Assembly (NCBI GenBank): GCA_037974665.1
Contig: CM075764.1
Span: 115,878,325-115,942,324, forward strand
Origin: Ehretia macrophylla
Taxonomy: Eukaryota > Streptophyta > Magnoliopsida > Boraginales > Ehretiaceae
Direction of reading: 5' to 3'
DNA: 64,000 nt
Under the pieces are notes generated by a model that was not told the origin of the DNA, searched no databases, and worked only from the letters and a program-made list of their open reading frames with translations. The translations under genes were made by a program, and so were the position numbers. Below, one piece after another: positions 5,825 to 47,253 of the stretch. Numbering within the stretch: the stretch's first letter is position 1; each line of letters begins with the position of its first letter.

Positions 5825-5835
5825 TTTCACTAAGG

Positions 5836-9204: not shown

Positions 9205-9804
9205 TAGAAATATGATGGATTAGGTTGTCGTCCTTTACGCGGCTCACGATGTACGATCCGGGATGGAAAAATAGCGAAAAGGAAGAAAAGGTTCCCGAAA
9301 TAGATGAAAATGTTTGATTTTAGGCTCTGAAAATAGGCGCAGCCGAGCAGGCTGGTTACCCCCGTCGTAGAGCTCTCAGAGAGCTTACCAACGGTATGAT
9401 ATGTGCCGCGTAACTCCTTACGGATCAAAAGTTATGGGCACCGAAACGACGAATACCTAGTCACAAGCCCCACGCCCTCGATTTGCGCGCCCAACCTCTA
9501 CGTGAAGTGAAGTTGTCTAGCCTAAGGTGCCGTGGGATTCGGTAATAGAAATGTGATGGATTAGGTTGTCGTCCTTTTCGCGGCTCATGACGTACGATCC
9601 GGGATGAAAAAATAGCGAAAAAGAAGAAAAGTGTCCCGAAAATGATGAAAACGTTCGATTTTGGGCTCCGAAAATAGATGTAGCCGAGTAGGATTGCTGT
9701 CCCCGTCGTAGAGCACTCGAAGAGATTTCCAAAAGTATGCTGTGCTCCGCGTAACTCCTTACGAATCAAAAGTTATGGGCACCAAAGCAACGGATACCTG
9801 GTCA

Positions 9805-9835
9805 CAAGCCCCACGCCCTTTACGTCAATGAAGTT
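9805..9835. repeat. Satellite monomer with 20-bp deletion
   Basis: The block that usually carries the GCGGGCCC segment is missing between CCCCACGCCC and TACGTCAATG, which shortens this monomer to 321 bp. Confidence 0.8.
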
Positions 9836-11055
9836 GTCTTGCCTAAGGTGTCATGGGATTCGGTAAAAGAACTATGATAGATTAGGTTGTTGTCCTTTTC
9901 GCGGCTCACGATGCATGATCCGGGATGGAAAAACAGCGGAAAAGAAAAAAAGTATCCTGAAACTGATGAAAACGTACAATTTTGGGCCTTGAAAACATGC
10001 GCAACCGAGTAGGCTAGGTACCTTAATCGTAGAGCTCTCGGAGAGCTTTCCAACGGTATGATGTGCACCGCATAACACTTTACGGATCAAAAGTTATGGG
10101 CACTGGAGCGACGGATACTAGGTCACAAGCCCCACGCCTTCGATTTGCGGGCCCAGCCTCTACGTCAAGTGAAGTTGTCTTGCCCTAGGAGCCGTGGGAT
10201 TCAGTAATAGAAATGTGATGGATTACATTGTCGTCCTTTTCGCGGCTTATGACGTATGATCCGGGATGGAAAAACAACGAAAAGGAAGAAAAGTGTCCCA
10301 AAACTGATGAAAACGTTTGATTTTGGGCTCCGAAAATAGGCGCAGTCGACCAGGCTTGTTGCCTCCGTCGTAGAGTTCTCAGAGAGCTTTGCAACGGTAT
10401 GCTGTGCGCCGCGTAACTCCTTACGGATCAAAAGTTATTAGTACCGGAGCGACGGATACTTGGTCACAAGCCCCACGCCCTCGATTTGCGGGCCCAGCCT
10501 CTACGTCAAGTGAAGTTGTCTTGCCCATGGTGCCGTCGGATTCAGTAATAGAAATGTGATTAATTAGGTTGTCATCCTTTTCGCAGCTCACCATATACGA
10601 TCCGGGATGGAAAAACAGCGGAAAAGAAGAAAAGTGTCCCGAAATAGATGAAAACGTTCGATTTTGGGATCCGAAAAGAGGCGCAATCGACCAGGCTTGT
10701 TACCTCAGTCGTAGAGCTCTCAGAGAGCTTTCCAACGATATGTTGTGCGCCGCGTAACTTCTTACGGATCAAAAGTTATAGGCACCGGAGCGACGGATAC
10801 CTGGTCACAAGCCCCACGCCCTCGATTTGCGGGCCCAGCCTGTACGTCAAGTGAAGTTGTCTTGCATAAGGTGCCATGGGATTCGATAATAGAAATATGA
10901 TGGATTAGGTTGTCGTCCTTTTCGCGGCTCACCGCGTACGATCCGAGACGAAAAAATAGCAAAAAATAAGAAAAGTGTCTCGAAACTAATGAAAACGTTT
11001 GATTTTGGGCTACGAAAAGAGGTGCAGCCGAGCAGGCATGCTGCCTTCGTCGTAG

Positions 11056-11070
11056 AGCTCTCGGAGAGCT
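11056..11070. repeat. Representative conserved dyad in the monomer
   Basis: AGCTCTCGGAGAGCT has perfect 7-bp inverted arms around one base. It recurs once per monomer, often as AGCTCTCAGAGAGCT, which keeps the arms. It includes a GAGCTC (SacI) site that most monomers retain. Confidence 0.8.
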
Positions 11071-11154
11071 TTCCAACGGTATGTTGTGCGCCTTGTAACT
11101 CCTTACGGATCAAAAGTTATGGGCATCGGAGCGACGGATACCTGGTTACAAGCC

Positions 11155-14100
11155 CTACGCCCTCGATTTGCGGGCCCAGCCTCTACGTAAAGTGAAGTTG
11201 TCTTGCCTAAGGTGTTGTGGGATTCGGTAATAGAAATGTGATAGATTAGGTTGTTGTCCTTTTCGCGGCTCACAACGTACGATCCGAGACGGAAAAACTG
11301 TAGAAAAGAAGAAAAGTGTCCCGAAACTGATTAAAACGTTTGAATTTGGTCTCCGAAAACTGACGTAGCTGACCACGCTTGATGCCTCCGTCGTAGAGCT
11401 CTCATAGTGCTTTCCAACGGTATGTTGTGCCCTTCGTAACTCCTTACGGATCAAAAGTTAAGGACACCGGAGCGACGGATACCTGGTCACAAGCCCCACG
11501 TCCTTTGTTTGCGGGCCCTGCCTCTACGTGAACTGAAGTTATTTTGCCCAAGGTACCGTGGGATTCGGTAATAGAAATGTGATGGATTAGGCTGTTGTCC
11601 TTTTCGCGGCTCACGACATACGATCCGGGACGAAAAAATAGCACAAAAGAAGAAAAGTGTCCCGAAACTGATGAAAACGTTCGATTTTGGGCATCGAAAA
11701 TAGGCACAGCTGGGTAGGATTGTTACCCCCGTTGTAGAGCTCTTGGAGAGCATTCCAACGGTATACTGTGCACCGCGTAACTCCTTACAGATTAAAAGTT
11801 ATGGGTACCGGAGCGACGGATACCTGGTAACCAGCCCCACGCCCTTGGTTTACGGGCCCAGCCTCTACATGAAGCGAAGTTGTCTTGCCCAAGGTGCCGT
11901 GGAATTCGATAATAGAAATGTGATGGATTAGGTTGCCGTCTTTTTTTGTGGCTCACAACGTACAATCCGAGACCAAAAAACAACACAAAAGAAGAAAAGT
12001 CTCTCGAAACTGATGAAAACGTTCAATTTTGGGATCCAAGAAAGGCACAGCAAAGCAGACTTGTTGCCCCCGTCGTAGAGCTCTCGGAGAACTTTCCAAC
12101 GGTATGCTGTGCGCTGCGTAACTCCTTACGGATTAAAAGTTATGGGTACCGGAGCGACGGATAGCTGGTAACCAGCCCCACACCCTCGATTTGCGGGCCC
12201 AGCCTCTACGTGAAGTGAAGTTGTCTTGCCTAAGGTGCCGTGGGATTCGGTAATAGAAATGTGATGGATTAGGTTGTCGTCCTTTTCGCGGCTCACGACG
12301 TACCATCTGGGACGAAAAAACAGTGCAAAAGAAGAAAAGTGTCCCGAAACTGATGAAAACGTTCAATTTTGGATTTCGAAAATAGGCGTAGCCGAGTAAG
12401 ATTGTTGCTCCCGTCGTAGAGCTCTCAAAGAGCTTTCCAACGGTATTCTGTGCGCCGCCCTTACGGATCAAAAGTTATGGGCACCGGAGCGACGGATACC
12501 TGGTCACAAGCCCTACGCCCTCGGTTTGCGAGCCCAGCCTCTACATGAAGTGAAGTTATCTTGCCCAAGGTGCCGTGGGATTCAGTAATAGAAATGTGAT
12601 GGATTAGGTTGTTTTCCTTTTCGCGGCTCACGACGTACGATCCAGGACGAAAAAACTTCGAAAAAGAAGAAAAGTGTCCTAAAACTGATAAAAATGTTCG
12701 ATTTTGATCTGCGAAAATAGGCGCAGCTGAGCATGCTTGCTGCCCCCATCGTAGAGCTCTCGGAGAGCTTTCCAACGGTATGCCGTGTGCCGCGTAACTC
12801 CTTACGGATCAAAAGTTATGCGCACTGGAGCGACGGATATCTGGTCACAAGCCCCACGACCTCGGTTTACGGGCCCAGCCTCTACATGAAGTGAAGTTGT
12901 CTTGCCCAAGCTACAGTGGGATTCTGTAATAGAAATGTGGTGGATTAGGTTGTCGTCCTTTTCGCGGCTCACGACGTACAATCCGAGATGAAAAAACAGC
13001 AGAAAATGAGAAAAGTGTCCCGAAACTGATTAAAACATTCGAATTTGGTCTCCGAAAACTGACGTAGCCGACCATGCTTGATGCCTCCGTCGTAGAGCTC
13101 TCAGAAAGCTTTCCAACGGTATGTTGTGCACCGCGTAACTCCTTACAGATCAAAAGTTAAGGGCACCGGAGCGACGGATACCTGGTCACAAGCCCCACGT
13201 CCTTTGTTTACGGGCCCTGCCTCTACGTGAACTGAAGTTATTTTGCCCAAGGTACCGTGGGATTCGGTAATAGAAATGTGATGGATTAGGCTGTTGTCCT
13301 TTTCGCGGCTCACGACATATGATCCGGGACGAAAAAACAGCGCAAAAGAAGAAAAGTGTCCCGAAAATAATGAAAACGTTCGATTTTGGGCTTCGAAAAT
13401 AGGCACAGCTAGGTAGGATTGCTGACCCCCTCGTAGAGCTCTTGAAGAACATTCCAACGTTATGCTGTGTACCTCGTAACTCCTTACGGATCAAAAGTTA
13501 TGGGCACCGGACCGACGGATACCTGGTCACAAGCCCCACGCCCTCGGTTTGTTGGCCCAGTCTCTACATGAAGTTAAGTTGTTTTTCCCAAGGTGCCATG
13601 GGATTCGGTAATAGAAATCATATGGATTAGCTTGTCGTCAATTTCGCAGCTAACGACGTACGATACGGGATGAAAAAATAGCGCAAAATAAGAAAACTGT
13701 CCCGAAATTGATGAAAACGTTCAATTTTGAGATCCAAAAATAGGCACAGCAAAGCATGCTTGTTGCCCCTGTCGTAGAGCTCTCGGAGAGCTTTCCAACG
13801 GTATGCTATACGTTGCGTAACTCCTTACGGATTAAAAGTTATGGGTACCAGAGCGACAGATAGCTGGTAACCAGCCCCACGCCCTCGATTTGTGGGCCCA
13901 GCCTCTACGTGAAGCGAAGATGTCTTGCCCAAGGTGCTATGGGATTCGGTAATAGAAATATGATGGATTAGGTTGTCATCCTTTTCGCAGCTCACGACGT
14001 ACGATCTGGGATGAAAAAACAGCGAAAATGAAGAAAAGTGTCCCGAAATTGATGAAAATGTTCGATTTTGGGCTCCGAAAATTGGCGCAGCCGAGTAAGA

Positions 14101-14552
14101 TTGTTGCCCCCCTCGTAGAGCTCTCAAAGAGCTTTCCAACGGGATTCTGTGCGCCGCCCCTACGGATCAAAAGTTATGGGCACCGGAGCGACGGATACCT
14201 GGTCACAAGCCCTACACCCTCAGTTTGAGGGCCCAGTCTCTTCATGAAGTGAAGTTGTCTTGCCCAAGGTGCCGTGCAATTCGGTAATATAAATGTGATG
14301 GATTAGGTTGTTATCCTTTTCGCGTCTCACGACGTACGATCCTGGACGAAAAAATAGCGCAAAAGAAGAAAAGTGTCCTAAAACTGATAAAAATGTTCGA
14401 TTTTGATCTGCGAAAATAGGCGCAGTTGAGCAGGCTTGTTGCCCCCATCGTAGAGCTCTCAGAGAGCTTTCCAACGGTATGCTTTGCACTGCGTAACTCC
14501 TTACGGATCAAAAGTTATGGGCACCGGAGGGACGGATATCTGGTCACAAGCC
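11155..14552. repeat. Higher-order repeat: two copies of a five-monomer unit (1699 bp)
   Basis: Rare variants recur at a constant offset of 1699 bp. These include TCCTTTGTTT with GGGCCCTGCC (11501 and 13200), TAGCTGGTAACCAGCCCC (12162 and 13861), and the 6-bp deletion giving GCGCCGCCC (12451 and 14150). The variant TTTTGATCTGCGAAAATAGG also recurs, at about 12712 and 14401. Since 5 x 341 is 1705, the 6-bp deletion accounts for 1699. Unit edges are approximate. Confidence 0.85.
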
Positions 14553-15099
14553 CCATGACCTTGATTTGCTGGCCCAGCCTCTACGTGAAGGGAAGTTGTC
14601 TTGCCCAAGGTGCCATGGGATTCGGTAATAGAAATGTGATGGATTAGGTTGTCATCTTTTTCGCGCCTCACGATGTACAATCCGGGATGAAAAAACAGCG
14701 GAAAAGAAGAAAAGTGTCCCGAAACTGATGAAAACATTCGATTTTGGGCTCCGAAAACAGGCACAGCCGAGCACGCTTGCTGCCCCTGTCGTAGAGCTCT
14801 CTGAGAGCTTTTCAACAGAATACTGTGCGCCTCGTAACTCCTTACGGATCAAAACTTATGCGCACCAGAGCGACGGATACCTGGTCACAAGCCCCACACC
14901 CTCGATTTGCAGGCCCAGCCTCTACGTGAAATGAAGTTGTCTTGCCCAACATGCCATGGGATTCAGTAATAGAAATATGATGTATTAGGTTGTCGTCCTT
15001 TTCGCGACTCATGACGTACGATCCGCGATGGAAAAACAGCACAAAAGAAGAAAAGTATCACGAAACTAATGAAAATGTTCGATTTTGGGCTCCAAAAAA

Positions 15100-18000
15100 A
15101 GTCACCGCCGAGCATCCTAGGTGCCCCCATTGTAGAGCTCTCAGAGAGCTTTCTAACGTTATGTTGTGCGCCGCTGAACTCCTTATCGATCTAAAGTTAT
15201 GAGCACCGGAGCGATGGATACCTGGTCACAAGCCCTACGCCCTCGGTTTACGGGCCCCATCCTCTACGTGAAGTGAAGTTTTCTTGCCCAAGGTGCTGTG
15301 CGATTCTATAATAGATATGTGATGGATTCGGTTGTCGTCCTTTTCGCGGCTCATGACGTACGATCTGGGACGGAAAAACAGCGAAAAAGGAGAAAAATAT
15401 CCCGAAATTGATGAAAACGTTCGATTTTGGGCTCCGAAAATAGGCATATCCTACGAGGCTTGTTACCTCTATCGTAGAACTCTCAGAGAGCTTTCCAACG
15501 GTATACTGTGCGCCGCGTAACTCCTTATGGATCAAATGTTAAGGGTACCGGAGCGACGGATACCTGGTTACAAGCCCCACGTCCTTTGTTTGCGGGCCCA
15601 GCCTCTACGTGAAGTGAAGTTGTTTTGCCCAAGTTACTGTGGGATTCGGTAATAAAAATGTGATGGATTAGGTTGTCGTCCTTTTTGCGGCTCACGACAT
15701 ATGATCCTGGACGGAAAAACAGCGCAAAAGAAGAAAAGTGTCCCGAAACTGATGAAAACATTCGATTTTTGGCTCCAAAAATAGGCGCAAATTGGTAGGA
15801 TTTCTACCCTCGTCGTAGAACTCTCGGAGAGCTTTCCAACGGTACGCTGTGCACCGCGTAACTCCTTACGGATTAAAAGTTATGGGCACCGGAGCGACGG
15901 ATACTTGGTCACAAGCCCCACGCCCTCGGTTTGCGGGCCCAGCCTCTACGTGAAGTGAAGTTTTCTTGCCTAATGTTCCATGGGATTCGGTAATTGAAAT
16001 GTGACGCATTAGGTTGTCGTCCTTTTCGCGGCTCACGACGTATGATCCGGAACGAAAAAACAGCGAAAAAGAATAAAAGTGTCCCAAAACTAATGAAAAC
16101 GTTCAATTTAGTGATCCGAAAATAGGCGTAGCCAACCAAGCTTGTTGCCTCTATCGTAGAGCTCTCAGAGAGCTTTCCAACGGTATGCTGTGCGCCGCAT
16201 AACTCTTTACGGATCAAAAGTTAAGGGCACCAGAGCAACGGATACCTGGTCACAAGCCCCACATCCTTTGTTTACGGGCCCAGCCTCTACTTGAAGTGAA
16301 GTTGTTTTGCCCAAGGTACCGTGGGATTCAATAATAGAAATGTGATGGATTAGATTGTCGTCCTTTTCGCGGCTCACGACTTACAATCCGGGAAGAAAAA
16401 ATAGCGTAAAACAAGAAAAGTGTCCCAAAACTGATGAAAATGTTCAATTTTGGGCTTTGATAATAGGCGTAGCTACGTAGGATTGCTGCCCCCGTCGTAG
16501 ATCTCTCGGAGAGCTTTCCAATGGTATGCTGTGCACCGCGTAACTCCTTACGGATCAAAAGTTATGGGCTCCGGAGTGACGGATACATGGTGACAAGCCC
16601 ACGCCCTCGAGTTGTGGGCCCAGCCTCTACGTGAAGTGAAGTTTTCTTGCCGAAGGTACCATGGGATTCGGTAATAGAAATGTGCTGGATTAGGTTATCG
16701 TACTTTTCGCGGCTCACGACGTACGATCCAGGACGAAAAAACAGCGAAAAAGAAGAAAAATGTCCTAAAATTGATGAAAATGTTCAATTTTGGGCTCCGA
16801 AAACAGGCACAGTAGAGCATGCTTGCTGCCCCAGTCATAGAGCTCTCGGAGAGCTTTCCAATGGAATACTGTGCACCTCGTAATTCCTTACGAATCAAAA
16901 CTTATGCCTACCGGAGCGACGGATACCTGGTCACAAGCCCCACACCCTCGATTTGCAGGCCCAGCCTCTACGTGAAGTGAAGTTGTCTTGCCCAACATGC
17001 CATGGGATTCAGTAATAGAAATGTAATGTATTAGGTTGTCGTCCTTTTCGCAGCTCACGACGTAAAATCCGCGACGGAAAAATAGCACAAAAGAAGAAAA
17101 GTGTCCAAAAACTTATGAAATTTTTTGATTTTGGGCTCCAAAAACAGTCGCGACCGAGCGTCCTAGGTACCCCCATTGTAGAGCTCTTAGTGAGCTTTCC
17201 AACGGTATGCTGTGCAACGCGTAACTCCTTACGGATCAAAAGTTATGAGCATTGGAGCGACGGATACCTGGTCACAAGCCCCACGCCCTCGGTTTGCGAG
17301 CCCAGCCTCTATGTGAAGTGAAGTTGTCTTGCCCAAGGTGCCATGGGATTCGGTAATAGAAATGTGATGGATTAGGTTGTCGTCCTTTTCGCGGCTCACG
17401 TACGATCCGGGACAGAAAAACATCAAAAAAGAAGAAAAATATCCCAAAATTGATGAAAACCTTCGATTTTGGGCTCCGAAAATAGGAATAGCCAACCAGG
17501 CTTGTTGCTTCGGTCGTAGAGCTCTCAGAGAGATTTCCAACGGTATGTTGTGCGCCGCGTAACTACTTATGGATCAAATGTTAAGGGTACCGGAGCGACG
17601 GATACCTGGTTATAAGCCCTACGTCCTTTGTTTGTGGGCTCAGCCTCTACGTGAAGTGAAGTTGTATTGCCCAAGGTACCGTGGGATTCAGTAATAGAAA
17701 TGTGATGCATTAGGTTGTTGTCCTTTTCGCGGCTCACGACATATTATCCTAGACAGGAAAAAAATTGCAAAAGAAGAAAAGTGTCACGAAACTGATGAAA
17801 ATGTTCGATTTTGGGCTCCAAAAATAGGCGCAGAGTAGTAGGATTTCTACTCCCGTCGTAGAGCTCTTGGAGAGCTTTCCAACGGTACGCTGTGCACCAC
17901 GTAACTCCTTACAGATCAAAAGTTATGGCACCGAAGCGACGGATACCTGGTCACAAGCCCTACGCCATCGTTTTGCGGGCCCAGCATCTACATGAAGTGA

Positions 18001-19200
18001 AGTTTGATTTCCCAAGGTGCCGTGGGATTCAGTAATTGAAATGTGATGGATTAGGTTGTCGTCCTTTTCGCGGCTCACGACGTACGATTCGGGATGGAAA
18101 AACAGCGTAAAAGAAGAAAAGTGTTCTAAAACTGATGAAAACGTTCAATTTTGAGATCCAAAAATAGGCGTAGCCGACCAAGCTTATTGCCTCTGTCGTA
18201 GAGCTTTCAGAGAGGTTTCTAACGGTATACTGTACGCCGCATAACTTCTTACGGATCAAAAGTTATGGGCACCGGAGCGACGGATACTTGGTCACAAGCC
18301 CCACGCCCTCGATCTGCGGGCCCAGCCTCTACGTGAAATGAAGTTTTCTGGCCTAACGTGTAGTGGGATTCGGTGATAAAAATGTGATGGATTAGGTTGT
18401 CGTCTTTTTCGCGGCTCACGACATATGATCCGGAACAGAAAAATAGCCTAAAAGAAGAAAAGTGTCTCGAAACTGATGAAAACATTCGATTTTGGGTTCC
18501 AAAAATAGGCGCAGCTCGCTAGGATTGCTACACTCGTCGTAGAGCTCTCGGAGAACTTTCCAACAGTATGCTGTGCACCGCGTAACTCCTTACAGATCAA
18601 AAGTTATGGGCACCGGAGCGACGGATACCTGATCACAAGCCCCACGCCCTCGGTTTACGGGCCCAGCCTCTACATGAAGTGAAGATGTCTTGCCCAAGGT
18701 GCCGTGGGATTCGGTAATAGAAATGTGATTGATTAGGTTGTCGTCCTTTTCGCGGCTCACGACGTACGATCCAGGATGAAAAAACAGCGGAAATGAAGAA
18801 AAACATCCCGAAAGTGATGAAAATGTTCAATTTTTGGCTTCGAAAACAGGCGCAGATGAGTAGGCTTGCAGCCCCCATCGTACAGCTCTAGGATAGCTTT
18901 CCAACAGTATGTTGTCCACCGCGTAACTCCTTTCGGATCAAAAGTTTTGGGTACCGGAGTGCCGGATACCTGGTCACAAGCCCTACGTCCTCTATTTGCT
19001 TGCCCAGCCTCAACGTGAGGTGAAGTTGTCTTGCCCAAGGTGTCGTGGGATTCGGTAATAGAAATGTGATAGATTAGGTTGTCATCCGTTTCGCGGCTCA
19101 CAACGTATGATCCAGAACGAAAAAACAGCGCAAAAGACTAAAAGTCTCCCAAAACTTATGAAAATGTTCGATTTTATGCTCCAAAAAATGACGCAGCCGA
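15100..19200. repeat. Higher-order repeat: two copies of a six-monomer unit (about 2043 bp)
   Basis: Rare variants repeat about 2043 bp apart: GGATCAAATGTTAAGGGTAC (15529 and 17571), GGATTTCTAC (15798 and 17841), and a CGAGC-TCCTAGG block (15109 and 17155). Six monomers would be 2046 bp. Related variants near 19200 and 21700 suggest the six-monomer spacing continues with more divergence. Confidence 0.78.
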
Positions 19201-34489: not shown

Positions 34490-34540
34490 GCGTAGCCGAC
34501 TAGGCGTATTGCCTCCGAGAGACGGATACCTGGTCACAAG
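34490..34540. repeat. Satellite monomer with 80-bp deletion
   Basis: The landmark spacing is 34367 to 34628, 261 bp. TTGCCTCCG joins directly to AGAGACGGATACC near 34518, so the conserved dyad and the GGATCAAAAGTTA block are absent from this copy. Confidence 0.8.
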
Positions 34541-35939
34541 CCCCACGTCCTTAGTTTGCGGGGCCAGCCTGTACGTGAAGTGAAGTTGTGTTGCCCAAGG
34601 TACCGTAGGATTCGGTAATAGAAATGTGATAGATTAGTTGTCGTCCTTTTCGCGGCTCACGACATACGATCCGGGACCGAAAAACAGCGCAAAAGAAGAC
34701 AAGTGTCCCGAAACTGATGAAAACGTTCGATTTTTTGCTCCCAAAATAGGCACAGTTGTTTAGGATTGATGCACCCGTCGTAGAGCTCTTGGAGAACTTT
34801 TCAACGGTATGCTATGCACCGCGTAACTCCTTACAGATCAAAAGTTATGGGCAACGGAGCGATGGATACCTGGTCACAAGCCCCACGCCCTCAGTTTGCT
34901 TGCCCAGCCTCTACGTGAAGTGAAGTTGTCTTGCCTAAGATGCCGTGGGATTCGGCAATAGAAATGTGATGGATTAGGTTGTCGTTCTTTTCGCGGCTCA
35001 TGACGTACGATCCGGGACCAAAAAACAGCGAAAAAGAAGAAAAGTGTCGCGAAACTGATAAAAACATTCAATTTTGTGCTCGGAAAATAGGCGTACCCAA
35101 ACCAGGCTTGTTGCCTCCATCGTAGAGCTCTAAGAGAGCTTTCCAATAGTATGCTGTGCACTGCGTAACTCCTTATGGATCAAAAGTTAAGGGTACCGGA
35201 GCGACGGATACCTGGTCACAAGCCCCACGTATTTTGTTTGTAGGCCCAGCCTCTACGTGAAGTGAAGTTGTTTTGCCTAAGGTACCGTGGGATTCGGTAA
35301 TATAAATGTGATGGATTAGGATGTCGTCCTTTTCGCGGCTCAGGACATACGATCCGGGACGAAAAAACAGCGCAAAGGAAGAAAAGTGTCTCGAAACTGA
35401 TGAAAACGTTCGATTTTGGACTCTGAAAATAGGCGCAGCTGGCTAGGACTGCTACCCCCGTCGTAGAGCTCTCGGGGAACTTTCCAATGGTATGTTGTGC
35501 ACCGCGTAACTCCTTACGGATCAAAAGTTTTGGGCATTGGTGCGACGGATACCTGGTCACAAGCACCACGCCCTCGGTTTGGGGGCCCAGCCTCTACATG
35601 AAGTGAAGTTGTCTTGCCCAAGGTGCCGTGGGATTCGGTAACACAAATGTGATGGATGAGGTTGTCGTTCTTTTCGCGGCTTACGACGTACGATCCGGGA
35701 TGAAAAAACAGCGGAAAGGAAGAAAAATATCCTGAAACTGATGAAAAAGTTCGATTTTGGGCTTCTAAAACAGGTGCAGCCGAGCAGGCTTGCTGCCCCC
35801 GTCGTAGATCTCTCGAAAAGCTTTCAAACGGTATGCTGTGCGCCGCGTAACTCCTTACGGATCAAAAGTTATTGCCACCGGAGCGACGGATACCTGGTCA
35901 CAAGCACCACACCCTCGATTTGCAGGCCCAACCTCTACG

Positions 35940-35944
35940 TGAGG
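35940..35944. repeat. Target-site duplication TGAGG (left copy; right copy 39808-39812)
   Basis: TGAGG flanks the solo LTR on both sides. With one copy removed, the satellite reads continuously (CTCTACGTGAGGTGAAGTTG, as at about 23098). Confidence 0.93.
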
Positions 35945-38900
35945 TGTCACGCCCTAACCGGACCTATAAAGGTTAGACTAGGGTGTGATCTAAACATTCA
36001 AGTCCTTTCACATTCTTAATCATTCTAGGAGGTTTAACACTTAACATTTTATTCTAGACTCCAAAATTTTCCGAAAATCCGGCAGCATAACGGCTGTAAT
36101 TGGGCTCTTTGTTTTGACCTAAATTTTTTAACAGCCTCAAACTTTCAATTCCAGTTCATTCCCGACTAGAGTTTACTATTTTATCGTCAATTGAATTGCT
36201 TATTGGTTATTTCGACGTCCCGTTTGATTTATAACCTAGCATGATACTATGTCTCGTTTGTCCATTTATCCTCGTTTCAAAATGTACATGTTGATCTTAG
36301 CTTATTAGCAAGTACCTGTTGAGATTGGATAAGTTCGTTTGCCTATTCCTTAGCTAAACATCATAACCTATGATAGATACTAGTGATAATAAAAGCAAAA
36401 CGATCATAGTATGTCTAGTATCAGTCTACTTAATATAAGTACAAACCAAAATTAGACCCCAAATTACAACGGGGGTCTATTACATCACAAACAACAAATA
36501 ACGTAGGGGAAATAGTCTTCTAGTAGCAAAAGTTCACAAGTAGTCACAATCAAGCAAAATAAGCAATGACAGGCATTCACTCCAGGGGTTCATCATTAGG
36601 CACACCGTCCTCGGGTTCCTGTACCTGGTCTTCTTCACCTGAGATGATAAAAGAGGGTAAGTCCTTATGAACTCAGCGAGGGGGAACGAGAAATAAGTTT
36701 TGAAACTCATTTTCCGGTTAAACTTATGAAATTCCCTTTCTCACACATGAATGTAACAGAAATACAAGTACAGAAATACAAGTACAGAATAGGAACACCG
36801 AACTTTCCTCCCTGAGGTTCTCTAGGAACCAAGTAGGAGTACTTATACACATAATAAAAAGGATACGGTGAGCTTTTGCTCTCAGATCAAGTCAAGTAAC
36901 AGGAGTTGCGGCCGACTTTAATTCATCCCCAAAACACGCCAGGTGGGTGTACTCCGAATGTACCCCGAAATCCTACGACCCAACTCTCCAAGGGTGAATA
37001 CCAAGCGAGAGAAGGAATTGGATCATGGTAGTCACGGTAACACCGGCAAGCCCGATGCCGCCCGGCGGACGTGAAACGCTACCATGCCACACGAAAGGTT
37101 GCAACCTTGTATGGAATGCACATTTATAACATTTAACATATCACATTAGGAGGACAACAAAGTAGGTTGCCTGCGAACAGTTATAAGATCGCACGTTGTC
37201 AAGTAGTCAAACAAGGCACGATAAGACAAGTAGTTTCACTTGAAAGGCATATAGAGTCATATGATCATCAAACGGGCAGCCATGTAACACATGTAAAACA
37301 GGCTATATAACTCATTAAGAGGTCCACGCAATCAAGCGATAAGATTATTCAACGTGCAATGATATCAACATGGGTTCGGATGCAAGAAAAGCTTATTTGT
37401 CAACATGCAATGGTCAAGATCACTTTTGAAGTTATAAAACATTTACGGGCAGCCCACTAAGCATATGATTCCAACACAATATCCAATTGATCAACACCCA
37501 TTAAGATTATTGAGTCATTAGGGTTCCCATTTCATGCTTAATCAAGTGATTAAAACCCTAAGTCCACTCAAGATCATTATCAAGTCTTGCATCATTTAAT
37601 TCAACATCCTCAAGTGCTCACAACAGTACACATAACATCCCAACCCCACATTTCCGCACAATTAGTGTCACAAGAGAGGTTACAACAATTTTCCAAGCAT
37701 ATGGCTAAATAAAACCTTTACTGCAATAGGCTGTTTTCTCACGATCAATAGGATAATCAAAAAATCTCCAAATTCAGTAAATAATATGTCAAATTAAAGC
37801 TTAAGAAGTTAACTAAAATCAGAAACAAACCTTGCATCAATTGGAGTTCAGAATCATTAGTTATAGCCGAAACAGTGAGGTAGCACAAAACTGTCCAGAT
37901 TTGTACACTTTTCAGAAATTGACATTTTTGAGGTCCTTAGAGTCAGTTTTAGCTTTGGTCCATTTCTGACAAAATTGTCCAGAACTGAAAAATATAGCAG
38001 CACACCAAATTTCACTCATTTTGGACAACATTTACTAAGTCAAATATGGTTCGTTCCACAAGGTCAGTGCATCTGCCAAAACCTGATTCATTTTTCCAGA
38101 TTTCCAGATTTGGTCACATTTTAATGATTTGCCATTTTGAGGACCTTAGAGTCAAAATTAGCTTTGGCCTATTTCCGGGAAAAATGTTCAAAACTGTCCA
38201 AAATAGTCACCCACAAATTTACAAGCATTTTCAACATCATTTGCATAGCTAAAATTACCTCGAAAATACTGGTCAGAGAGCTGTCATCCATTTCGACTTC
38301 ACCTGGCATCATTTTCAAGCCAAGATCTTGCCATGCATGGTTGTTTAAGCTTATGAACGACCATATATCTCACGTACAGAAGCAAATACATACATTTATG
38401 AGCATGCATGTGAGTTTTTAAAGAGTTTTTAAAAGATTTTAACCCTCACCTTAGCAATCAACCACAAAGATGCACAAAAACTTGTTGAAGCTTCAAATCT
38501 CTTCTTCTTCTTGCTTAGCCGAGATTCCAACTTGGTTTCTCTATTTTTCCTAGCTTAGTGATCAATCTCTTAGCACATGCATGAGGTTAGAACAAGAAGA
38601 AAAGAAATGGAAGCCAAGAAAACTCACCTAGGCCGAATAGAGGTCTTCAATGTACATGCATGTGTGATTTTCACTTCCTAGCTAGCTCGGTTGAGGTCCT
38701 TTGCTTATGGCTTGCTTTGTTTAGCTATGGTGTGAAGAAGATAAGCTATGGAGGTGGAGAACTCAGCCAAAACCGAAATGGAGAGAGGAAATGAGAGGGA
38801 AGTGAGAGAAAAGAATGAAGAGAAATGAAGAAATGACAAAGAAATGAAGCCTTTTGCAAGTTGGAGGAGCATGTCGGCCTTGGGCTTCCAAATCTGAATT

Positions 38901-39807
38901 TTTGTGTCTTCAAGGTGGAATTTGAAATGTTAGCATGGGCCATGAGTGGTTTGGTCGAAAATGAGAGGAAATTGAGGTGGTTTTGGGCAATTTTTTATGC
39001 ATTGATAAGTGTTTTTGTGTCATGACTTGTCTAGAATCATTTTGAATTAAACATGCATGCAAAAATCTGATTTTGTGTCATCTTTTGAATTGTTTTAACA
39101 TGTGTGTAAGAGAATGTTGGGTATTTAGGGATTTTAGGTAGAATAGAATATAGGGTATGTTTAGAGGTTTGTGAGATTTTGTCTTGTAGTGAGTTTAAAA
39201 TATAATATTTAGGTGTTAGTGGATTTTGTAGAGATTTGAATTAGGATTATAATAATAGTTAGTGGATTGTGTAGGATTATTTTATTGTCTTGTGCTTTGT
39301 GTAGGATTCTTTATTGATTAGCGTGGTGGCACGGATTCCTAGGTCTAGGGCACGAATTACGAGGTAGACACGAACTACGAGATAAGACACCAACTTCAAG
39401 ACTAATGCACGTACTTCAAGATAAATGCACGGATTCTAATGCTAACACACGCAACCCTAGGTGAATGAACGTAAACCAATACAAGGCACGTATTTCAATG
39501 CAATGCACGTAAAACAAGACATGACTCTTAAACTTAGGTTAAGACACGTAGTTCAAGGTTAATGCACACGAAACGAAGAGACACGCAAATCAAGGTCTCA
39601 CACGTAAATTAAGGTCATGGCATGTTTATCTAGGTATTGCACGGCACGTATATCGAGGATTAGGGCACACAATTCTAGGTTAAGGCACGTATGACGAAGT
39701 ATGCACAAAAACTAAGACAGGGCACGTAATCCAAGGTCAGTCATATCATTCTTAGTCTAAGGCACGCAAATCAAGATAACACACGTTATTCGGGGTCGGG
39801 CCTCACA
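35945..39807 (-). mobile_element. Solo LTR inside the satellite array (3863 bp)
   Basis: Complete LTR of the A/B family from TGTCACGCCC to GGGCCTCACA, flanked by TGAGG duplications. No internal region is attached, as expected after recombination between the two LTRs of a full element. It carries the internal 210-bp duplication (about 37895 and 38104) and the long form of the edge minisatellite (39325-39800, about 22 units), which explains why it is about 300 bp longer than the LTR at 52066. Orientation is the same as element A. Confidence 0.93.
39325..39800. repeat. LTR-edge minisatellite, long form (about 22 units)
   Basis: Degenerate 18-22 bp units beginning GGCACG or GACACG and ending in AGGTA, AAGGTTA or similar occupy the last 480 bp of this LTR. 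That is about twice the count in the short-form LTRs. Confidence 0.75.
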
Positions 39808-41140
39808 TGAGGTGAAGTTGTCTTGCCCAACGTGTCGTGGGATTCGGTAATAGAAATGTGATGGATTAGGTTGTCGTCCTTTTCACGGCTCACGACATAC
39901 GATTTGAGATGGAAAAACTGTGCAAAAGAAGAAAAATGTCCCAAAACTTATGAAAATGTTTGATTTTGGGCTCCAAAAACATATGCAGCCGAGCATGCTA
40001 GGTGCCCCTATTGTAGAGCTCTCAGAGAGTTTTCCAACGGTATACTGTGCGCCTCGTAACTCCTTATGGATCAAAAGTTATGGGCACCGGAGCGACGGAT
40101 ACCTGGTCACAAGCCCCACGCCCTTGGTATGCGAGCCCAGCCTCTACGTGAAGTGAAGTTGTCTTGCCCAAGATGCCGTGGGATTCGGTAATAGAAATGT
40201 GATAGATTGGGCTGTTGTCCTTTTCGCGGCTCATGACATACGATCTAGGACAAAAAAATAACGTAAAAGAAGAAAAGTGTCTCGAAACTGATTAAAATGT
40301 TCGATTTTGGGCTCCGAAAATAGGCGCAGCTAGCTAGCATTGCTACCCCGTCGTAGAGCTCCCGGAGAACTTTCGAATGGTATGTTGTGCACCGCGTAAC
40401 TCTTTACAGATCAAAAGTTATGGGTACCGGAGCGATGGATACCTGGTCACAAGCCCCACGCCCTCGGTTTGGGGGCCCAGCCTCTACATGAAGTGAAGTT
40501 GTCTTGCCCAAGGTGCCGTGGGATTCGATAATAGAAATGTGATGGATTAGGTAGTCGTCCTTTTCGCGGCTCACGACGTACAATCCGAGACGGAAAAATA
40601 GTACAAAAGAAGAAAAATGTCCCAAAACTTATGAAAATGTTCGATTCTGGGCTCCAAAACATATGCAGCCATTCATGCTAGGTGCCCCCATTGTAGAGCT
40701 CTCAGAGAGCTTTCCAACGACATGTTGTGCGCCGCGTAGCTCCTTACGGATCATAAGTTATGGGCATCGGAGCGACGGATACCTAGTTACAAGCCCCACG
40801 CCCTCGGTTTGCGAGCCCAGCCTCTACGTGAAGTAAAGTTGTCTTGCCCAAGGTACCGTGGGATTCGATAATAGAAATGTGATGGATTAGGTTGTCGTCC
40901 TTTTCGCAGCTCACGACGTACGATTTAGGACGAAAAAATAGCGGAAAAGAAGAAAAGTGACCCAAAACTGATGAAAATGTGCAATTTTGGGCTTCAAAAA
41001 TAGGCGTAGCCAACCAGGCTTGTTGCCTCTGTCGTAGAGATCTCAGAGTGTTTTCCAACGGTATGTTGTGCGCCTCGTAACTCCTTACGGATCAAAAGTT
41101 AAGGGCACCGGAGAGACAGATACCTGGTCATAAACCCCAC

Positions 41141-44100
41141 GTCCTTTGTTTGCGGGCCCAGCCTCTACGTGAACTGAAGTTGTTTTGCCCAAGGTACCAT
41201 AGGATTCGGTAATAGAAATGTGATGGATTAGGTTGTCGTCCTTTTCGCAACTCACGACATACGATTCGGGAAGAAAAAACAGCGCAAAAAAAGAAAAGTA
41301 TCTCGAAATTGATGAAAACGTTCGATTTTTGGCTCCAAAAATAGGATCAGCTAGGTAAGATTGTTGCCGCCGTCGTAAAGCTCTCGGAGATCTTTCCAAC
41401 GGTTTGCTGTGTGCCGCGTAACTCCTTACGGATCAAAAGTTATGGGCACCGGAACGACGGATAATTGGTCACAAGTCCTACGTCCTCGGTTTACTAGCCC
41501 AGCCTCTACGTGAAGTAAAGTTGTCTTGCCTAGGGTGTTGTGGGATTCGGTAATAGAAATATGATGGATTAGGTTGTCGTCCTTTTCGCGGCTCACGACG
41601 TACGATCCGGGACGGAAAAATAGCGAAAAAGAAGAAAAGTGTCCCAAAACTGATGAAAATGTTCAATTTTGGGCTCTGAATATAGGCGTAGCCGACCAGG
41701 CTTGTTACCTCTGTCGTAGAGCTCTCAGAGAGCTTTCCAACGGTATGCTGTGCGCCGCGTAACTCCTTATGGATCAAAAGTTATGGGCACCGGGGCGACT
41801 GATACCTGGTCACAAGCCCCATGCCCAAGGTTTGCAGGCCTAGTCTCTACGTGAAGTGAAGTTGTCTTACCCAAGGTGCCATGGGATTCGGTAATAGAAA
41901 TGTGATGGATTAGGTTGTCGTCCTTTTCTTAACTCACAACATACAATCTGGGATGAAAAAATAGCGAAAAAGAAGAAAAGTGTCCCAAAATTGATGAAAA
42001 CGTTTGATTTTTGACACCAAAAATAGGCGCAGCTAGGTAGGATTGTTGTCCCCGTCGTAGAGATCTCAAAGATCTTTCCAACGGTATACTGTGCACCGCG
42101 TAACACCTTACAGATCAAAAGTTATGGGCACCAAAGCGACGGATACCTGGTCACAAGCCTCACGACCTTGGTTTGCAGGCCCAACCTCTACGTGAAGTCA
42201 AGTTGTTTTGCCTAAGGTGCCACGGGATTCGGTAATAGAAATTGATGGATTAAGTTGTCGTCCTTCTCGCGGTTCACGACGTACGATCCGGGACGGAAAA
42301 AACTGCAGAAAAGAAGAAAAGTGTCCAAAACTGATGGAAACGTTCAATTTTTGGCACCGAAAATAGGCGTAGCCGACCAGTCTTGTTGCCTCCGTCGTAG
42401 AGCTCTTAGAGAGCTTTCCAACGGTATGTTGTGCGCCGCGTAATTCCTTACGGATCAAAAGTTATGGGAACCGGGGCGATGGATACCTGGTCACAAGCCC
42501 CACGTCTTTTGTTTACGGGCCCAGCCTCTACGTGAAGTGAAGTTGTTTTTCCCAAGATACCTTGGGATTCGGTAATAGAAATGTGATGGATTAGGTTGTC
42601 ATCCTTTTCGCGGCTCATGACATACGATCCGGGATGGAAAAACATCGCAAAAGAAGAAAAGTGTCCCAAAACTAAAGAAAACATTCAATTTTTGGCTCCA
42701 AAAATAGGCGCAGCTAGGCAGGATTGCAGCCCCCGTCGTAGAGCTCTCGGAGAGCTTTCCAATGGTATGTTGTACACCGCGTAACTCCTTACGGATCAAA
42801 AGTTATGGGCACCGGAGCGACGGATACCTGGTCACAAGCCCCACGCCCTCGGTTTGGCAGCCCAACCTCTACATGAAGTGAAGTTGTCTTGCCCAAGGTG
42901 CTGTGGGATTCGGTAATAGAAATGTGATGGATTAGGTTGTCGTCCTTTTCGCGGCTTACTACGTACGATCCGGGACGAAAAAATAGCGGAAAGGAAGAAA
43001 AGTGCCCTGAAATTGATGAAAATATTCGATTTTGGGCTTTGAAAATAGGTACAGCCGAGCAGTCTTGCTACCCCCGTCGTAGATCTCTCAGAGAGCTTTC
43101 CAACGGTATGCTGTGCACCACGTAACTCCTTACGGATCAAAAGTTATGGGTACCGAAGCGACGGATACCTGGTCACAAGCCCCACGCCCTCGATTTGTGG
43201 GCCCAGCCTATACGTGAAGTGGAGTTGTCTTGCCCAACATGTCACGGGATTTGGCAATAGAAATGTGATGGATTAGGTTGTCTTCCTTTTTGCGGCTCAC
43301 GACGTACGATTCGAGACAGAAAAACAGTGCAAAAGAAGAAAAATGTCCCAAAACTTATGAAAATGTTCGATTTTGGGCTCCAAAAACAGATGCAGCCATG
43401 CATGCTAGGTGCCCCCATTGTAGAGCTCTCAGAGAGCTTTCCAACGGTATGCTGTGCGCCGCGTAACTCCTTATGGATCAAAAGTTATGGGCGGCAGAGC
43501 GACAGATACTGCTCACAAGCCCCATGCCCTCGGTTTGCAGGCCCAGCCTCTACGTGAAGTGAAGTTGTCTTGCCCAAGGTGCCGTGGGATTCTGCAATAG
43601 AAATGTGATGGATTAGGTTGTCGTCCTTTTCTCGGCTCACGACGTACGATTTGGAACGAAAAAATAGCGGAAAAGAACAAAAGTATCCCGAAACTGATGA
43701 AAACGTTCAATTTTGGGCTCCAAAAATAGCGTAACCAAACAGGCTTGTTTCCTTCGTCGTAGAGAACTCAGAGTGCTTTCCAACGGTATACTGTGTGCCT
43801 CGTAACTCCTTACGGATCAAAAGTTAAAGGCACCGGAGCAACGGATACCTGGTCACAAGCCCCTTGTCCTTTGTTTGCAGGCCAAGCCTCTACGTGAAGT
43901 GAAGTTGTTTCCCCCACGGTACCGTGGGATTCGGTAATAGAAATGTGATGGATTAGGTTGACGTTCTTTTCACAGCTCACGACATACGATCCGGGACCGA
44001 AAAATAGGGCAAAAGAAGAAAAGTGTCCCGAAACTGATGAAAACGTTCGATATTTGGCTCCAAAAATAGGCGCAGCTAGGTAAGATTGTTGTCCCCGTCG

Positions 44101-45240
44101 TAGAGCTCTCGGAGAGCTTTCCAACGGTATGTTGTGCACCGCGTAATACTTTACGAATCAAAAGTTATGGGCACCGGAGCGACGGATACCTGGTCACAAG
44201 CCCTACGCCCTCGGCTTGCTGGCCCAGCCTCTGCGTGAAGTGAAGTTGTCTTACGTAAGGTTCCGTAGGATTCGGTAATAGAAAAGTGATGGATTAGGTT
44301 GTCGTCCTTCTCGCGGCTCATAACGTACGATCCGGGATGGAAAAACAGTGAAAAAGAAGAAAAGTGTCCCAAAACTGACGAAAACTTTCAATTTTGGGCC
44401 CTGAAAATAGGCGTAGCCGACCAGGCTTGTTGCCTCCGTCATAGAGCTCTCAGAGAGCTTTCCAACGGTATGTTGTGCGCTGCGTAACTCCTTATGGATC
44501 AAAAGTTATAGGCACCGGAGCGACGGATACCTGGTCACAAGCCCCATGCCCTCGATTTTCGGGCCCAGCCTCTACGTGAAGTGAAGTTGTCTTGCCCAAG
44601 GTACCATGGAATTCGGTAATAGAAATGTGATGGATTAGGTTGTCGTCCTTTTCTCGGCTCACGACGTACGATTTGGGACGAAAAAAAGCGAAAACGAAGA
44701 AAAGTGTCCCGAAATTGGTGAAAACATTCGATTTTTGGCTCCAAAAATAGGCGCAGCAAGGTAGAATTGTTGCCCTCGTCGTAGTGCTCTCGAAGAGCTT
44801 TCCAACGGTATACTGTGCATTGCGTAACACCTTACGGATCAAAAGTTATGGGCACCAAAGCGACGGATACCTGGTCACAAGCCTCACGCCCTCGGTTTGC
44901 GGGCCCAGCCTCTACGTGAAGTGAAGTTGTCTTGACTAAGGTGCCATGGAATTTGGTAATAGAAATGTGATGGATTAGGTTGTCATCCTTCTCGCGGCTC
45001 ACGACGTACGATCTGAGACGGAAAAACAGTGGAAAAGAAGAAAAGTATCCCAAAACTGATGAAAACATTCAATTTTTGGAGCTAAAAATAGGCGTAGCCG
45101 ACCAGTCTTGTTGCCTCCGTCGTAGAGCTCTTACAGAGCTTTCCAACGGTATGTTGTGCGCCACGTAACTCCTTACGGATCAAAAGTTAAGGGCACCGGA
45201 GCGACGGATACCTGGTCACAAGCCCCACGTCCTTTGTTTA
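41141..45240. repeat. Higher-order repeat: four-monomer spacing (about 1363 bp)
   Basis: The rare monomer type with GTCCTTTGTTT (or GTCTTTTGTTT) in place of GCCCTCGGTTT occurs at 41141, 42504, 43866 and 45229, spacings 1363, 1362 and 1363. Four monomers would be 1364 bp. Confidence 0.75.
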
Positions 45241-46481
45241 CGGCCCCAGCCTCTACGTTAAGTGAAGTTTTTTTGCCCAAGATACCGTGGGATTCAGTAA
45301 TATAAATTTAATGGATTAGGTTGTCGTCCTTTTCGCGGCTCATGACATACGATTTGGGATGAAAAAACAGCGCAAAAGAAGAAAAGTGTCCCGAAATAAA
45401 GAAAATGTTCAATTTTTGGCTCCAAAAATAGGAGCAGCTAGGTAGAATTGTAGCCCCCATCGTAGAGCTCTCGGAGAGCTTTCCAACGGTATGTTGTACA
45501 CCGCGTAACTCCTTACGGATGAAAAGTTATGGGCACCAGAGCGACGGATACCTGGTTACAAGCCCCACGCCCTCGATTTGCAGGCCGAACCTCTATATAA
45601 AGTGAAGTTGTCTTCCGAAGGGACCATGGGATTCGGTAATAGAAATGTGATGGATATGGTTGTCGTCCTTTTTGCGGCTCACAACGTACGATCCGGGACG
45701 AAAAAATAGCGGAAAAGAAGAAAAATATCTCAAAACTGATGAAAACGTTCGATTTTGGGCTTCGAAAACAGGCGCAGTCGAGAAGCCATGCTGCCCCCGT
45801 AGTAGAGCTCTCGGAGAGCTTTCCCATGGTATGCTGTGCGCCACGTAACTCCTTACGGAAGAAAAGTTATGGGCACCGGAGCGACGGATACCTAGTCACA
45901 AGCCCTACACCCTCGATTTGCGGGCCCAGCCTCTAAGTGAAGTGAAGTTGTCTTGCCCAACATGTCGTGGGTTTCGATAATAGAAATGTGATGGATTAGG
46001 TTGTCGTCCTTTTCGCGGCTCACGACGTACGATCTGGGACGGAAAAACATTACAAAAGAAGAAAAGTGTCCCAAACTTATGAAAATGTTCGATTTTGGGG
46101 CTCTAAAAACAGATGCAGCCGAGCATACTAGGTGCCCCCATTGTAGGGGTCTCAAAGAGCTTTCCAACGGTATACTGTGCGCCGCGTAACTCATAATGGA
46201 TCAAACGTTATGGGCTCTGGAGCGACGGATACCTGGTCAAAAGCCCCACGCCCTCGGTTTGTGGGCCCAGCCTCTACATGAGGTAAAGTTGTTTTGCCCA
46301 AGATACCATGAGATTCGGTAATAGAAATGTGATGGATTAGGTTATCGCCTTTTTCACGGCTCACGACATATGATCCGGGACGGAAAAATAGCGAAAAAGA
46401 AGAAAAGTGTCCCAAAATTGATGAAAACGTTCAATTTTTGGCACCAAAAATAGGCACAGCTGGGTAAGATTGTTGCCCCCA

Positions 46482-46680
46482 TCGTAGAACTCTCGGAGAG
46501 CTTTCCAACGGTATGCTGTTCACCGCGTAACTCGTTACAAATCAAAAGTTATTGGCACCGGAGCGACGGATACCTGGTCACAAGCTCCACGCCCTCGGTT
46601 TGCGGGCCCAGCCTCTACATGAAATGAAGTTGTCTTGCCTAAGGTGTCGTGGCATTCGGTAATAGAAATATGATGGATTA
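46482..46680. repeat. 199-bp segment nearly identical to 31482-31680 in block 1
   Basis: Only two differences are visible across 199 bp, including shared private variants (GCTGTTCACC, AACTCGTTACAAATC, CAAGCTCCAC, GTGGCATTCGG). Neighbouring monomers differ far more. Similarity drops sharply on both sides. Confidence 0.85.
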
Positions 46681-47253
46681 GGTTGTCGTCCTTTTCGCGG
46701 CTCACGACGTACGATCCGCGATGAAATAATAGCGCAAAAGAAGAAATGTGTCCCGAAACAGATGAAAACGTTCGATTTTTGGCTCCCAAAATAGGCGCAG
46801 CTTGGTAGGATTGTTACGCTCGTCGTAGAGCTCTCGGAGAGCTTTCCAACGGTATGTTGTGCACCGCGTAACACCTTACGAATCAAGAGTTATGGGCATT
46901 GGAGCGACGGATACCTGGTCATAATCCCCACACCCTCGCTTTGCGAGCCCAGCCTCTACGTGAAGTGAAGTTGTCTTGCCTAAGGTGCCACGGGGTTCAG
47001 TAATAGAAATGTGATGGATTAGGTTGTCGTCCTTCTCGAGGCTCACGACGTACGATCCGGGACGGAAAAATAGCAGAAAAGAAGAAAAGTGTCCTAAAAC
47101 TGATGAAAACGTTCAATTTTGGGCTCTGAAAATAGGCGTAGCCGACCAGGCTTGTTGCCTCCATCATAGAGCTCTTAGAGAACTTTCCAACGGTATGTTG
47201 TGCACCGCGTAACTCCTTACGGATCAAAAGTTAAGGGCACTGGAGCGACGGAT

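What the first reader, a model, noticed from the sequence alone, without database searches (positions are those of the whole stretch)
9205..47253. One 34-kb satellite array (341-bp monomer, about 100 copies) split by a solo LTR
Spacings of exactly 341 bp over many copies, and the interrupted monomer resuming precisely after the duplicated TGAGG, show that the two blocks were one array. The monomer length is in the range of two nucleosome repeats, common for plant centromeric or knob satellites. I do not recognise the sequence.
Basis: partly seen in the sequence, partly recalled or inferred. Interest (0 to 1): 0.7.

Follow-up and report, generated by a model that had tools for sequence, protein, structure and literature searches.

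The report
Old satellite array, copied along chromosome
A plant-like genome carries, at this spot, about 100 tandem copies of a 341-base non-coding repeat cut in two by a leftover retrotransposon end; the repeat is a common satellite of that genome, and this array has two sister copies far away on the same contig that show how such arrays slowly change.

Summary
A 341-bp monomer runs head to tail from 9205 to 35944 and 39808 to 47253, about 100 copies, split by a 3863-bp solo LTR with TGAGG duplications; the cut monomer adds up to 341 bp. Three things were missed. (1) The array has a decayed, irregular higher-order structure: neighbours are less alike than random pairs, and multi-monomer blocks recur, some across the LTR. 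(2) The family is abundant: one 30-mer of it occurs 37,634 times in the 1.58-Gb genome, very roughly 130,000 copies (3%), in several clusters along contig C1 and on other contigs. (3) The left flank, the exact left junction and partly collinear satellite exist at three places on C1 (49.85, 54.40, 115.89 Mb), flanks 95-96% identical. The stretch read at 49.85 Mb lacks this solo LTR, so the LTR is probably younger than the split. The same LTR family joins the satellite 124 times genome-wide within one 61-bp stretch of the monomer, at few positions; some of these are copies of one insertion. CENH3 binding could not be tested. A satellite family that my searches did not find described; a known kind. 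The dated sister arrays are the useful part.

The parts
9205..35944 (+). Satellite block 1: 341-bp monomers, rows 0-78 and the first 13 bp of the cut monomer
39808..47253 (+). Satellite block 2: second TGAGG copy, then 328 bp of the cut monomer, then rows 80-100
35945..39807 (-). Solo LTR, 3863 bp; element sense is the minus strand, judged from relatives in the flanks whose primer-binding-site motif lies beside the corresponding end
35940..35944 (.). Target-site duplication TGAGG, first copy
39808..39812 (.). Target-site duplication TGAGG, second copy
9205..9206 (.). Left junction, Ty3-type pol to satellite, with a 2-bp overlap (TA); matched over full length at three places on contig C1, the window included, of 40 scored
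8199..9204 (+). Fragment of Ty3-type pol (RNase H; integrase by reading and by 67% DNA identity to the right flank) that abuts the array on the left
   Evidence: the 8990-9205 piece has no Pfam match
47254..49254 (+). Another truncated Ty3-type pol (end of RT by reading, RNase H, integrase zinc finger, SH3) that abuts the array on the right; of 40 scored places only the window has this junction
24800..47253 (+). Part of the array with long-range duplications: monomers 46-59 vs 73-86 (offset 27), and offset 8 in monomers 67-97
21394..23436 (+). Six-monomer block (rows 36-41) that recurs at rows 41, 47, 66, 74 and 84 (also 18 and 92, weaker)
5813..8193 (-). LTR of the same family with an internal deletion, and primer-binding-site motif, in the left flank; shared with the two sister loci, so older than the split of the three

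Best explanation
This is one array of a common, dispersed satellite family of a plant-like genome, in a region rich in Ty3-type retrotransposons. Shown from sequence: a tandem array with an irregular, decayed higher-order structure; an LTR insertion that left a target-site duplication; a left flank and junction shared by three places on one contig, one of them inverted; satellite order that is partly kept between them; and a sister stretch without this LTR. Inferred: the blocks arose by unequal exchange or end-joining repair between copies; the array and its flank were then copied or moved along the chromosome, after which each copy gained and lost monomers; the solo LTR comes from LTR-LTR recombination after the split; the strong C-to-T bias means methylated, silent chromatin; and the array has no coding role and acts, if at all, as heterochromatin and as a landing place for this LTR family.
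For: Anatomy. Higher-order structure: mean identity at separation 1 is 0.834 (z -3.9), at 6 and 8 it is 0.848 and 0.850 (z 3.7 and 4.6; 0 of 2000 permutations as high); deficit at 1 and excess at 6 and 8 hold on transversions alone. Best segments score 0.362 (offset 27), 0.298 (offset 8) and 0.246 (offset 30) against a largest value of 0.214 in 500 permutations. Decay: transitions 0.161 per site at CG and 0.141 at CHG, 0.017 at A/T. Abundance: 37,634 exact hits of a 30-mer, reversed control 0, exact in 29 of about 100 window copies. Sisters: a junction query matches full length at 3 of 40 scored places, the window included, all on C1; flanks 95.7, 96.0 and 95.2% identical and collinear chains of 1.438, 0.680 and 0.610 against largest permuted values of 0.743, 0.492 and 0.415 of 60 each; 25.5 kb of satellite in the 49.85-Mb sister without a break, the collinear counterpart of the cut monomer among it.
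Against: On transversions alone the offset-27 segment does not pass (0.071 vs 95% point 0.076) and the best offset-8 score (0.110) lies under the largest permuted one (0.120). The right junction was found only in the window among 40 scored places, so copying of the whole array is not shown; the two sisters were read only in part, and the satellite of the 54.40-Mb one runs to the edge of what I fetched. By identity alone the best match to the empty site in the 49.85-Mb sister is another monomer (92.5% vs 91.5% for the collinear one). The 130,000-copy figure assumes that the window's share of exact 30-mers holds genome-wide. Methylation and silencing are inferred from mutation bias only. Single assembly, no reads.
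Confidence: 0.85

Rival explanations
1. It is a functional centromeric satellite: this array, or larger arrays of the family, bind CENH3.
For: High copy number, arrays with higher-order structure, LTR insertions in the satellite. Many hits at 32-33.7 and 49.7-55.3 Mb of C1.
Against: Hits near 4.9, 20-25, 32-42, 49.7-55.3, 115.8-117.0 and 122-124.6 Mb of the 126.5-Mb contig C1, so not one place on it unless holocentric; low homogeneity (pairwise 0.83-0.86 in each of 20 sampled stretches). No CENH3 data.
Confidence: 0.15
2. The satellite is carried by a retrotransposon (born as tandem repeats inside an LTR element, then expanded), so the junction with Ty3-type pol is part of the mobile unit.
For: Plant satellites born from retrotransposon tandem repeats are described (review PMC12477314, passages seen). 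Both array ends lie in Ty3-type pol.
Against: Outside the array edges the best match of the monomer to the flanks or the LTR has E 2.5. The left junction is at 3 of 40 scored places, the other 37 match only the pol half; the right junction at 1 of 40. The two pol fragments are 67% identical, so not halves of one element.
Confidence: 0.1
3. The split array or the sister arrays are assembly artefacts (misjoined or haplotype-duplicated sequence).
Against: Longest exact repeat 158 bp, monomer pairs at most 0.94 identical within the window, flanks 4-5% apart, loci 4.5 to 66 Mb apart, different LTR breaks in each, exact TSD and phase at the LTR.
Confidence: 0.05

Closest known systems
Maize CentC arrays in centromere 10 (PMC4806543; passages seen)
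   Same: Tandem monomers interrupted by retrotransposons; solo LTRs nearby; higher-order repeats formed by adjacent duplications; small arrays flanked by retrotransposons.
   Different: CentC is 156 bp and lies in a mapped centromere; duplications dated there at 131-297 thousand years. Here the monomer is 341 bp, copies are about 84% alike and the family lies in several clusters along one contig; centromere function untested.
Arabidopsis centromeric satellite invaded by ATHILA (named in review PMC12477314, passages seen; monomer details recalled)
   Same: A Ty3-type LTR family repeatedly inserted into one satellite.
   Different: That satellite is centromeric; this one is in several clusters and untested. 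The lineage of the LTR family here is not established.
American pika candidate centromere repeat of 341 bp (PMC4053949, passage seen)
   Same: Monomer length.
   Different: Animal; sequence not compared; taken as coincidence.
Retand-borne satellites and Lathyrus satellites born in LTR elements (PMC12477314, passages seen)
   Same: Satellite and LTR elements intermixed.
   Different: No sign in this window that the monomer comes from an LTR element.

Membership tests
Satellite DNA | Head-to-tail, non-coding unit in long arrays | tested here: met
   longest stop-free run in block 1 is 132 codons, mean 168 in 100 mononucleotide shuffles
Satellite DNA | High copy number in many arrays | tested here: met
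   37,634 exact 30-mer hits, control 0; each of 20 sampled 10-kb stretches, chosen at hits, holds it
Centromeric satellite | Restricted to one region per chromosome | tested here: not met
   Several separate clusters along contig C1; other contigs not mapped, and that contigs are whole chromosomes is assumed
Centromeric satellite | CENH3 enrichment | not testable with these tools
   no ChIP data
Higher-order repeat array | Multi-monomer units more alike than their constituent monomers | tested here: met
   irregular, no single period; weaker on transversions, where offsets 8, 30 and 5 pass the 95% point and 27 does not
Solo LTR | TG...CA ends, target-site duplication, no internal region | tested here: met
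   one relative in the flank aligns end to end
Solo LTR | LTR identity: primer-binding site and polypurine tract beside relatives of the same sequence | tested here: met
   TGGTATCAGAGC (motif recalled) on the minus strand at 5813-5824 and 61546-61557, each 11 bases from a TGTCAYGCC end; purine-rich minus strand beyond the other end near 2886
Chromovirus (Tekay-like) LTR family | Chromodomain at the integrase C terminus in elements of this LTR family | tested here: inconclusive
   No chromodomain among the Pfam matches of 8 flanking pieces, but no piece covered that region of an element tied to this LTR family; the label is recalled

The most novel reading that the evidence does not exclude
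The satellite and this LTR family form a target-and-invader pair: the retrotransposon goes into the monomer at a few preferred positions (18 of 61 possible positions used by 100 listed joins), and the arrays in turn travel along the chromosome as large segments, so that three datable paralogues allow direct measurement of how fast a plant satellite array gains, loses and mutates monomers while hardly homogenising.
Probability: 0.35. Interest if true: 0.55.

Novelty: new member of a known kind. Interest (0 to 1): 0.4.

Why it matters
How satellite arrays turn over is usually inferred from arrays of unknown relationship. Here three loci share a junction and a flank that serves as a clock: flank transversions 1.4-1.7%, 2.0-2.5% in the counterpart monomers compared, 5.3% between random satellite pairs. 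That separates old block structure from later gain and loss of monomers and places the LTR insertion, most likely, after the split from at least one sister. It also shows an abundant satellite whose copies within an array are on average hardly more alike than copies on other contigs, although a tree still finds some grouping by locus.

Tried and rejected
Half-monomer origin (two 170-bp units): no internal similarity. A/T 10-bp periodicity of the monomer: p 0.36. Ten-bp periodicity of LTR insertion positions (nucleosome face): looked attractive, not supported (p 0.11-0.17 for periods 10-11; 0.02 at period 5 and 0.06 at 5.25, uncorrected). Functional dyad at consensus 209-241: present in the consensus (p 0.007, 300 mononucleotide shuffles) but copies show no compensating change (paired 0.692, expected 0.697). 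CENP-B-box-like site (box recalled): best match has 2 of 9 fixed positions wrong, not convincing. Coding role: no long frames. Rfam at gathering scores and tRNA: nothing. Mixture-model subtyping gave no clear solution, dropped; linked-allele groups used instead. I first took the 35-nt matches for native monomer variants; the stricter LTR end showed many to be LTR joins, while others (C3 near 63.66 Mb) disappeared. Whether the LTR family hits the satellite more often than the satellite's share of the genome predicts: not tested; the total LTR count and the opposite-orientation test did not complete.

The insertion-position test uses the 100 rows listed of 124. I read the gap lengths off by hand and did not correct them for three rows with an indel. 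Several rows share an odd flank on one contig and are probably copies of one insertion, so independent events are fewer than 100; I did not remove them before the test.
Full report
Observation. The array is real and the coordinates are right. Tandem Repeats Finder reports period 341 in both blocks. Aligning both blocks to a cyclic consensus gives 102 rows, 101 after joining the cut monomer, over 9205-35944 and 39808-47253. Pairwise identity has mean 0.841 and range 0.772-0.940. Most monomers are 340-342 bp; nine inner ones are shorter (325, 337, 335, 335, 338, 339, 339, 308, 261 bp). The insert at 35945-39807 is 3863 bp with TG...CA ends and TGAGG on both sides, and the cut monomer adds up to 341 bp.

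Solo LTR. Relatives of the insert lie in both flanks at 77-82% identity over stretches of 0.8-3.9 kb, one of them end to end. Beside two of them, on the minus strand and 11 bases from the TGTCAYGCC end, stands TGGTATCAGAGC (recalled as the initiator-Met primer-binding site; 2 exact matches in the window, and 5 with two mismatches elsewhere; chance expectation for the 7 together 3.6). Beyond the other end of a relative near 2886 the minus strand is purine-rich. So the sense of the LTR is the minus strand. Two LTR stretches in the left flank (1-1587 and 6551-8138), which may belong to one element, are 95.4% identical. Pfam finds RNase H, integrase zinc finger, SH3_Tf2-1, protease and gag domains in 7 of 8 flanking pieces, some below the curated cut-off; the piece 8990-9205 has none. 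The chromovirus (Tekay-like) label is recalled and not established.

Flanks of the array. On the left it abuts a pol fragment (RNase H, then integrase by reading), on the right another that starts, by reading, at the end of RT; they are 67% identical where they overlap, so they come from two elements. The left junction has a 2-bp overlap at 9205-9206, judged against an uncut relative of the pol element.

Higher-order structure. Neighbouring monomers are less alike than random pairs (0.834 vs 0.841, z -3.9); separations 6 and 8 are more alike (z 3.7 and 4.6, none of 2000 permutations as high); block 2 alone has a clear period of 8 (0.879, z 6.6). Best segments: offset 27, monomers 46-59 vs 73-86, mean 0.888; offset 8, 67-89 vs 75-97, 0.876; offset 30, 36-41 vs 66-71, 0.904; offset 11, 36-41 vs 47-52, at the edge of the largest permuted value (0.218 vs 0.214). 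The block 36-41 recurs at 41, 47, 66, 74 and 84 at 0.895-0.904 and at 18 and 92 at 0.88; the 95% null point is 0.875, the largest of 2000 permutations 0.889. Linked alleles fall into four larger groups (A-D) with a preferred order, such as C before B. With transversions only, the deficit at separation 1 and the excess at 6 and 8 remain; of the segments, offsets 8, 30 and 5 pass the 95% null point, offset 27 does not, and the largest permuted score exceeds them all. Offset 27 and the block copy at 74-79 run across the LTR insertion in monomer 79 while the other copies hold no LTR there, so the insertion came after these duplications.

Mutation pattern. Transitions per site are 0.161 at CG, 0.141 at CHG, 0.064 at CHH and 0.017 at A/T. 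I read this as decay of methylated cytosines. The monomer has a variable stretch around 166-212 (worst 30 bp 0.108 non-C-to-T changes per site, mean 0.038; none of 5000 permutations as high) and a conserved one near 295 (p 0.007). The variable stretch carries many subtype alleles.

Genome context. The window is C1:115,878,325-115,942,324 of a 1.58-Gb genome in 20 contigs, no name given. A consensus 30-mer occurs 37,634 times (18,901 and 18,733 by strand; reversed control 0) and in 29 of about 100 window copies. If that share is typical there are about 130,000 copies, 44 Mb or 2.8% of the genome. Hits on C1 lie near 4.9, 20-25, 32-42, 49.7-55.3, 115.8-117.0 and 122-124.6 Mb (listings are capped). 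Satellite matches were listed on 16 of 20 contigs: C1-C10, C12, C13, C14, C16, C17 and C19. Twenty 10-kb stretches chosen at hits (15 on C1, 5 on other contigs) all hold the satellite; mean pairwise identity within them is 0.827-0.859, between them 0.812-0.854. A tree of 513 monomers (the window sampled at 30) shows grouping by locus (224 changes against 410 or more in 100 shuffles; the minimum is 20) and by C1 against the rest (50 against 97 or more), with most tree length (32.7 of 39.3) in terminal branches. So arrays are weakly, not fully, homogenised. Some pairs elsewhere are 0.97-1.00 identical, so local duplication still goes on.

Sister arrays. A 400-bp query across the left junction matches over its full length at 3 of 40 scored places: the window, C1:49,849,737 (+, 90%) and C1:54,395,356 (-, 92%); the other 37 match only the pol half. 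The left flanks are 95.7% (3939 bp), 96.0% (5463 bp) and 95.2% (3935 bp) identical as far as I fetched. Satellite order is partly kept: the best collinear chains have 47, 28 and 27 pairs with scores of 1.438, 0.680 and 0.610 against largest permuted scores of 0.743, 0.492 and 0.415 (60 permutations each). The A-D types are frequent in L016 and L018, which belong to these two sisters, and rare in the other 18 stretches. The first sister has 25.5 kb of satellite without a break; its collinear counterpart of the cut monomer is intact, 341 bp, 0.91 identical. By identity alone another of its monomers matches the joined empty site better (92.5% vs 91.5%), but within that 25.5 kb none is interrupted. 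Its own LTR lies to the right of this, in the other orientation and 81% like the one in the window. The break in the second sister has its LTR end at monomer column 186, not near column 11-13 as here, so it is another insertion. The right junction of the window was found nowhere else among 40 scored places.

Rates. Flank differences are 2.2-2.7% transitions and 1.4-1.7% transversions. Three monomers next to the junction differ between window and first sister by 6.7% and 2.5%, five between window and second sister by 6.8% and 2.0%, and 16 collinear pairs, chosen for high identity, by 4.3% and 2.0%; random satellite pairs differ by 10.4% and 5.3%. By transversions the family's spread is thus two to four times older than the split of these loci, if rates are even. 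Absolute dates need a rate for this species; with 6.1e-9 (used for hop in PMC12371157, passage seen) or 1.3e-8 (recalled) the split would be very roughly 1.5-4 million years old.

LTR family and satellite. A query across the satellite-LTR junction matches at or near full length at 31 of 40 scored places, the window included; the 30 others are 80-89% identical, on 13 contigs, and the rest match only the LTR half or little more. This listing favours joins near the same point, and some rows look like copies of one insertion (two pairs on C7 both about 4.5 Mb apart, one pair on C2). A satellite anchor followed within 60 nt by a strict LTR end gives 124 joins (64 and 60 by strand; control 0); among the 100 listed, 18 of 61 positions are used, with 23 at one, 21 at another and 19 at a pair of neighbouring positions (chi-square 690 against at most 118 in 20,000 uniform draws). 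Rows with the same odd flank on one contig are probably copies of one insertion and were not removed; the top positions nevertheless show many different flanks. Sequence preference of the integrase, chromatin, or spread of insertions with the arrays could each explain the peaks. In the fetched stretches and the window 7 of 13 such LTR ends abut satellite, but the stretches were chosen for satellite and one of the 13 is only a motif match.

Literature. Searches for a 341-bp satellite, for its strings and pattern scans of viral contigs and genome contigs gave no relative; those collections hold no plant genomes, so this says little about whether the family is already described. Papers seen as passages only: PMC4053949, PMC4806543, PMC12477314, PMC12371157. 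The other papers were seen as listings with abstract starts.

Verdict. The finding is correct and its kind is ordinary. What lifts it is the set of three datable sister loci, the decayed higher-order structure and the repeated insertion of one LTR family. Centromere function remains untested.

Noticed in passing
window 52066-59409: Two LTRs of the same family lie tail to tail, 52066-55633 on one strand and 59409-55671 on the other, 37 bp apart.
   Followed up: no
window 5836-8193: An LTR of the same family lacks its middle part: it runs to 8138 and goes on with the last 54 bp of the LTR at 8140-8193, followed by pol; the flanks of both sister loci align across it.
   Followed up: partly
window 59388-61292, minus strand: Gag and protease frames end near the start of RT (by reading) and run into an LTR of this family at 59409, as in a truncated element.
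   Followed up: no
satellite consensus 166-241: Hypervariable stretch (166-212) that carries many subtype alleles, beside a 33-bp imperfect dyad at 209-241.
   Followed up: partly
L027 (C8:46457000-46466999) and L023 (C1:124550000-124559999): Monomer pairs up to 1.000 and 0.997 identical, so recent local duplication in otherwise old arrays.
   Followed up: no
L021 (C1:115942325-115952324) and L020 (C1:115817000-115826999): The same satellite resumes about 1 kb to the right of the window and another stretch ends about 57 kb to the left of it, each bounded by this LTR family.
   Followed up: no
C7:44478186 and 48998841; C7:44832185 and 49332800: Two pairs of satellite-LTR joins of near-equal score, both about 4.5 Mb apart on C7: perhaps another segment copied along a chromosome.
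   Followed up: no
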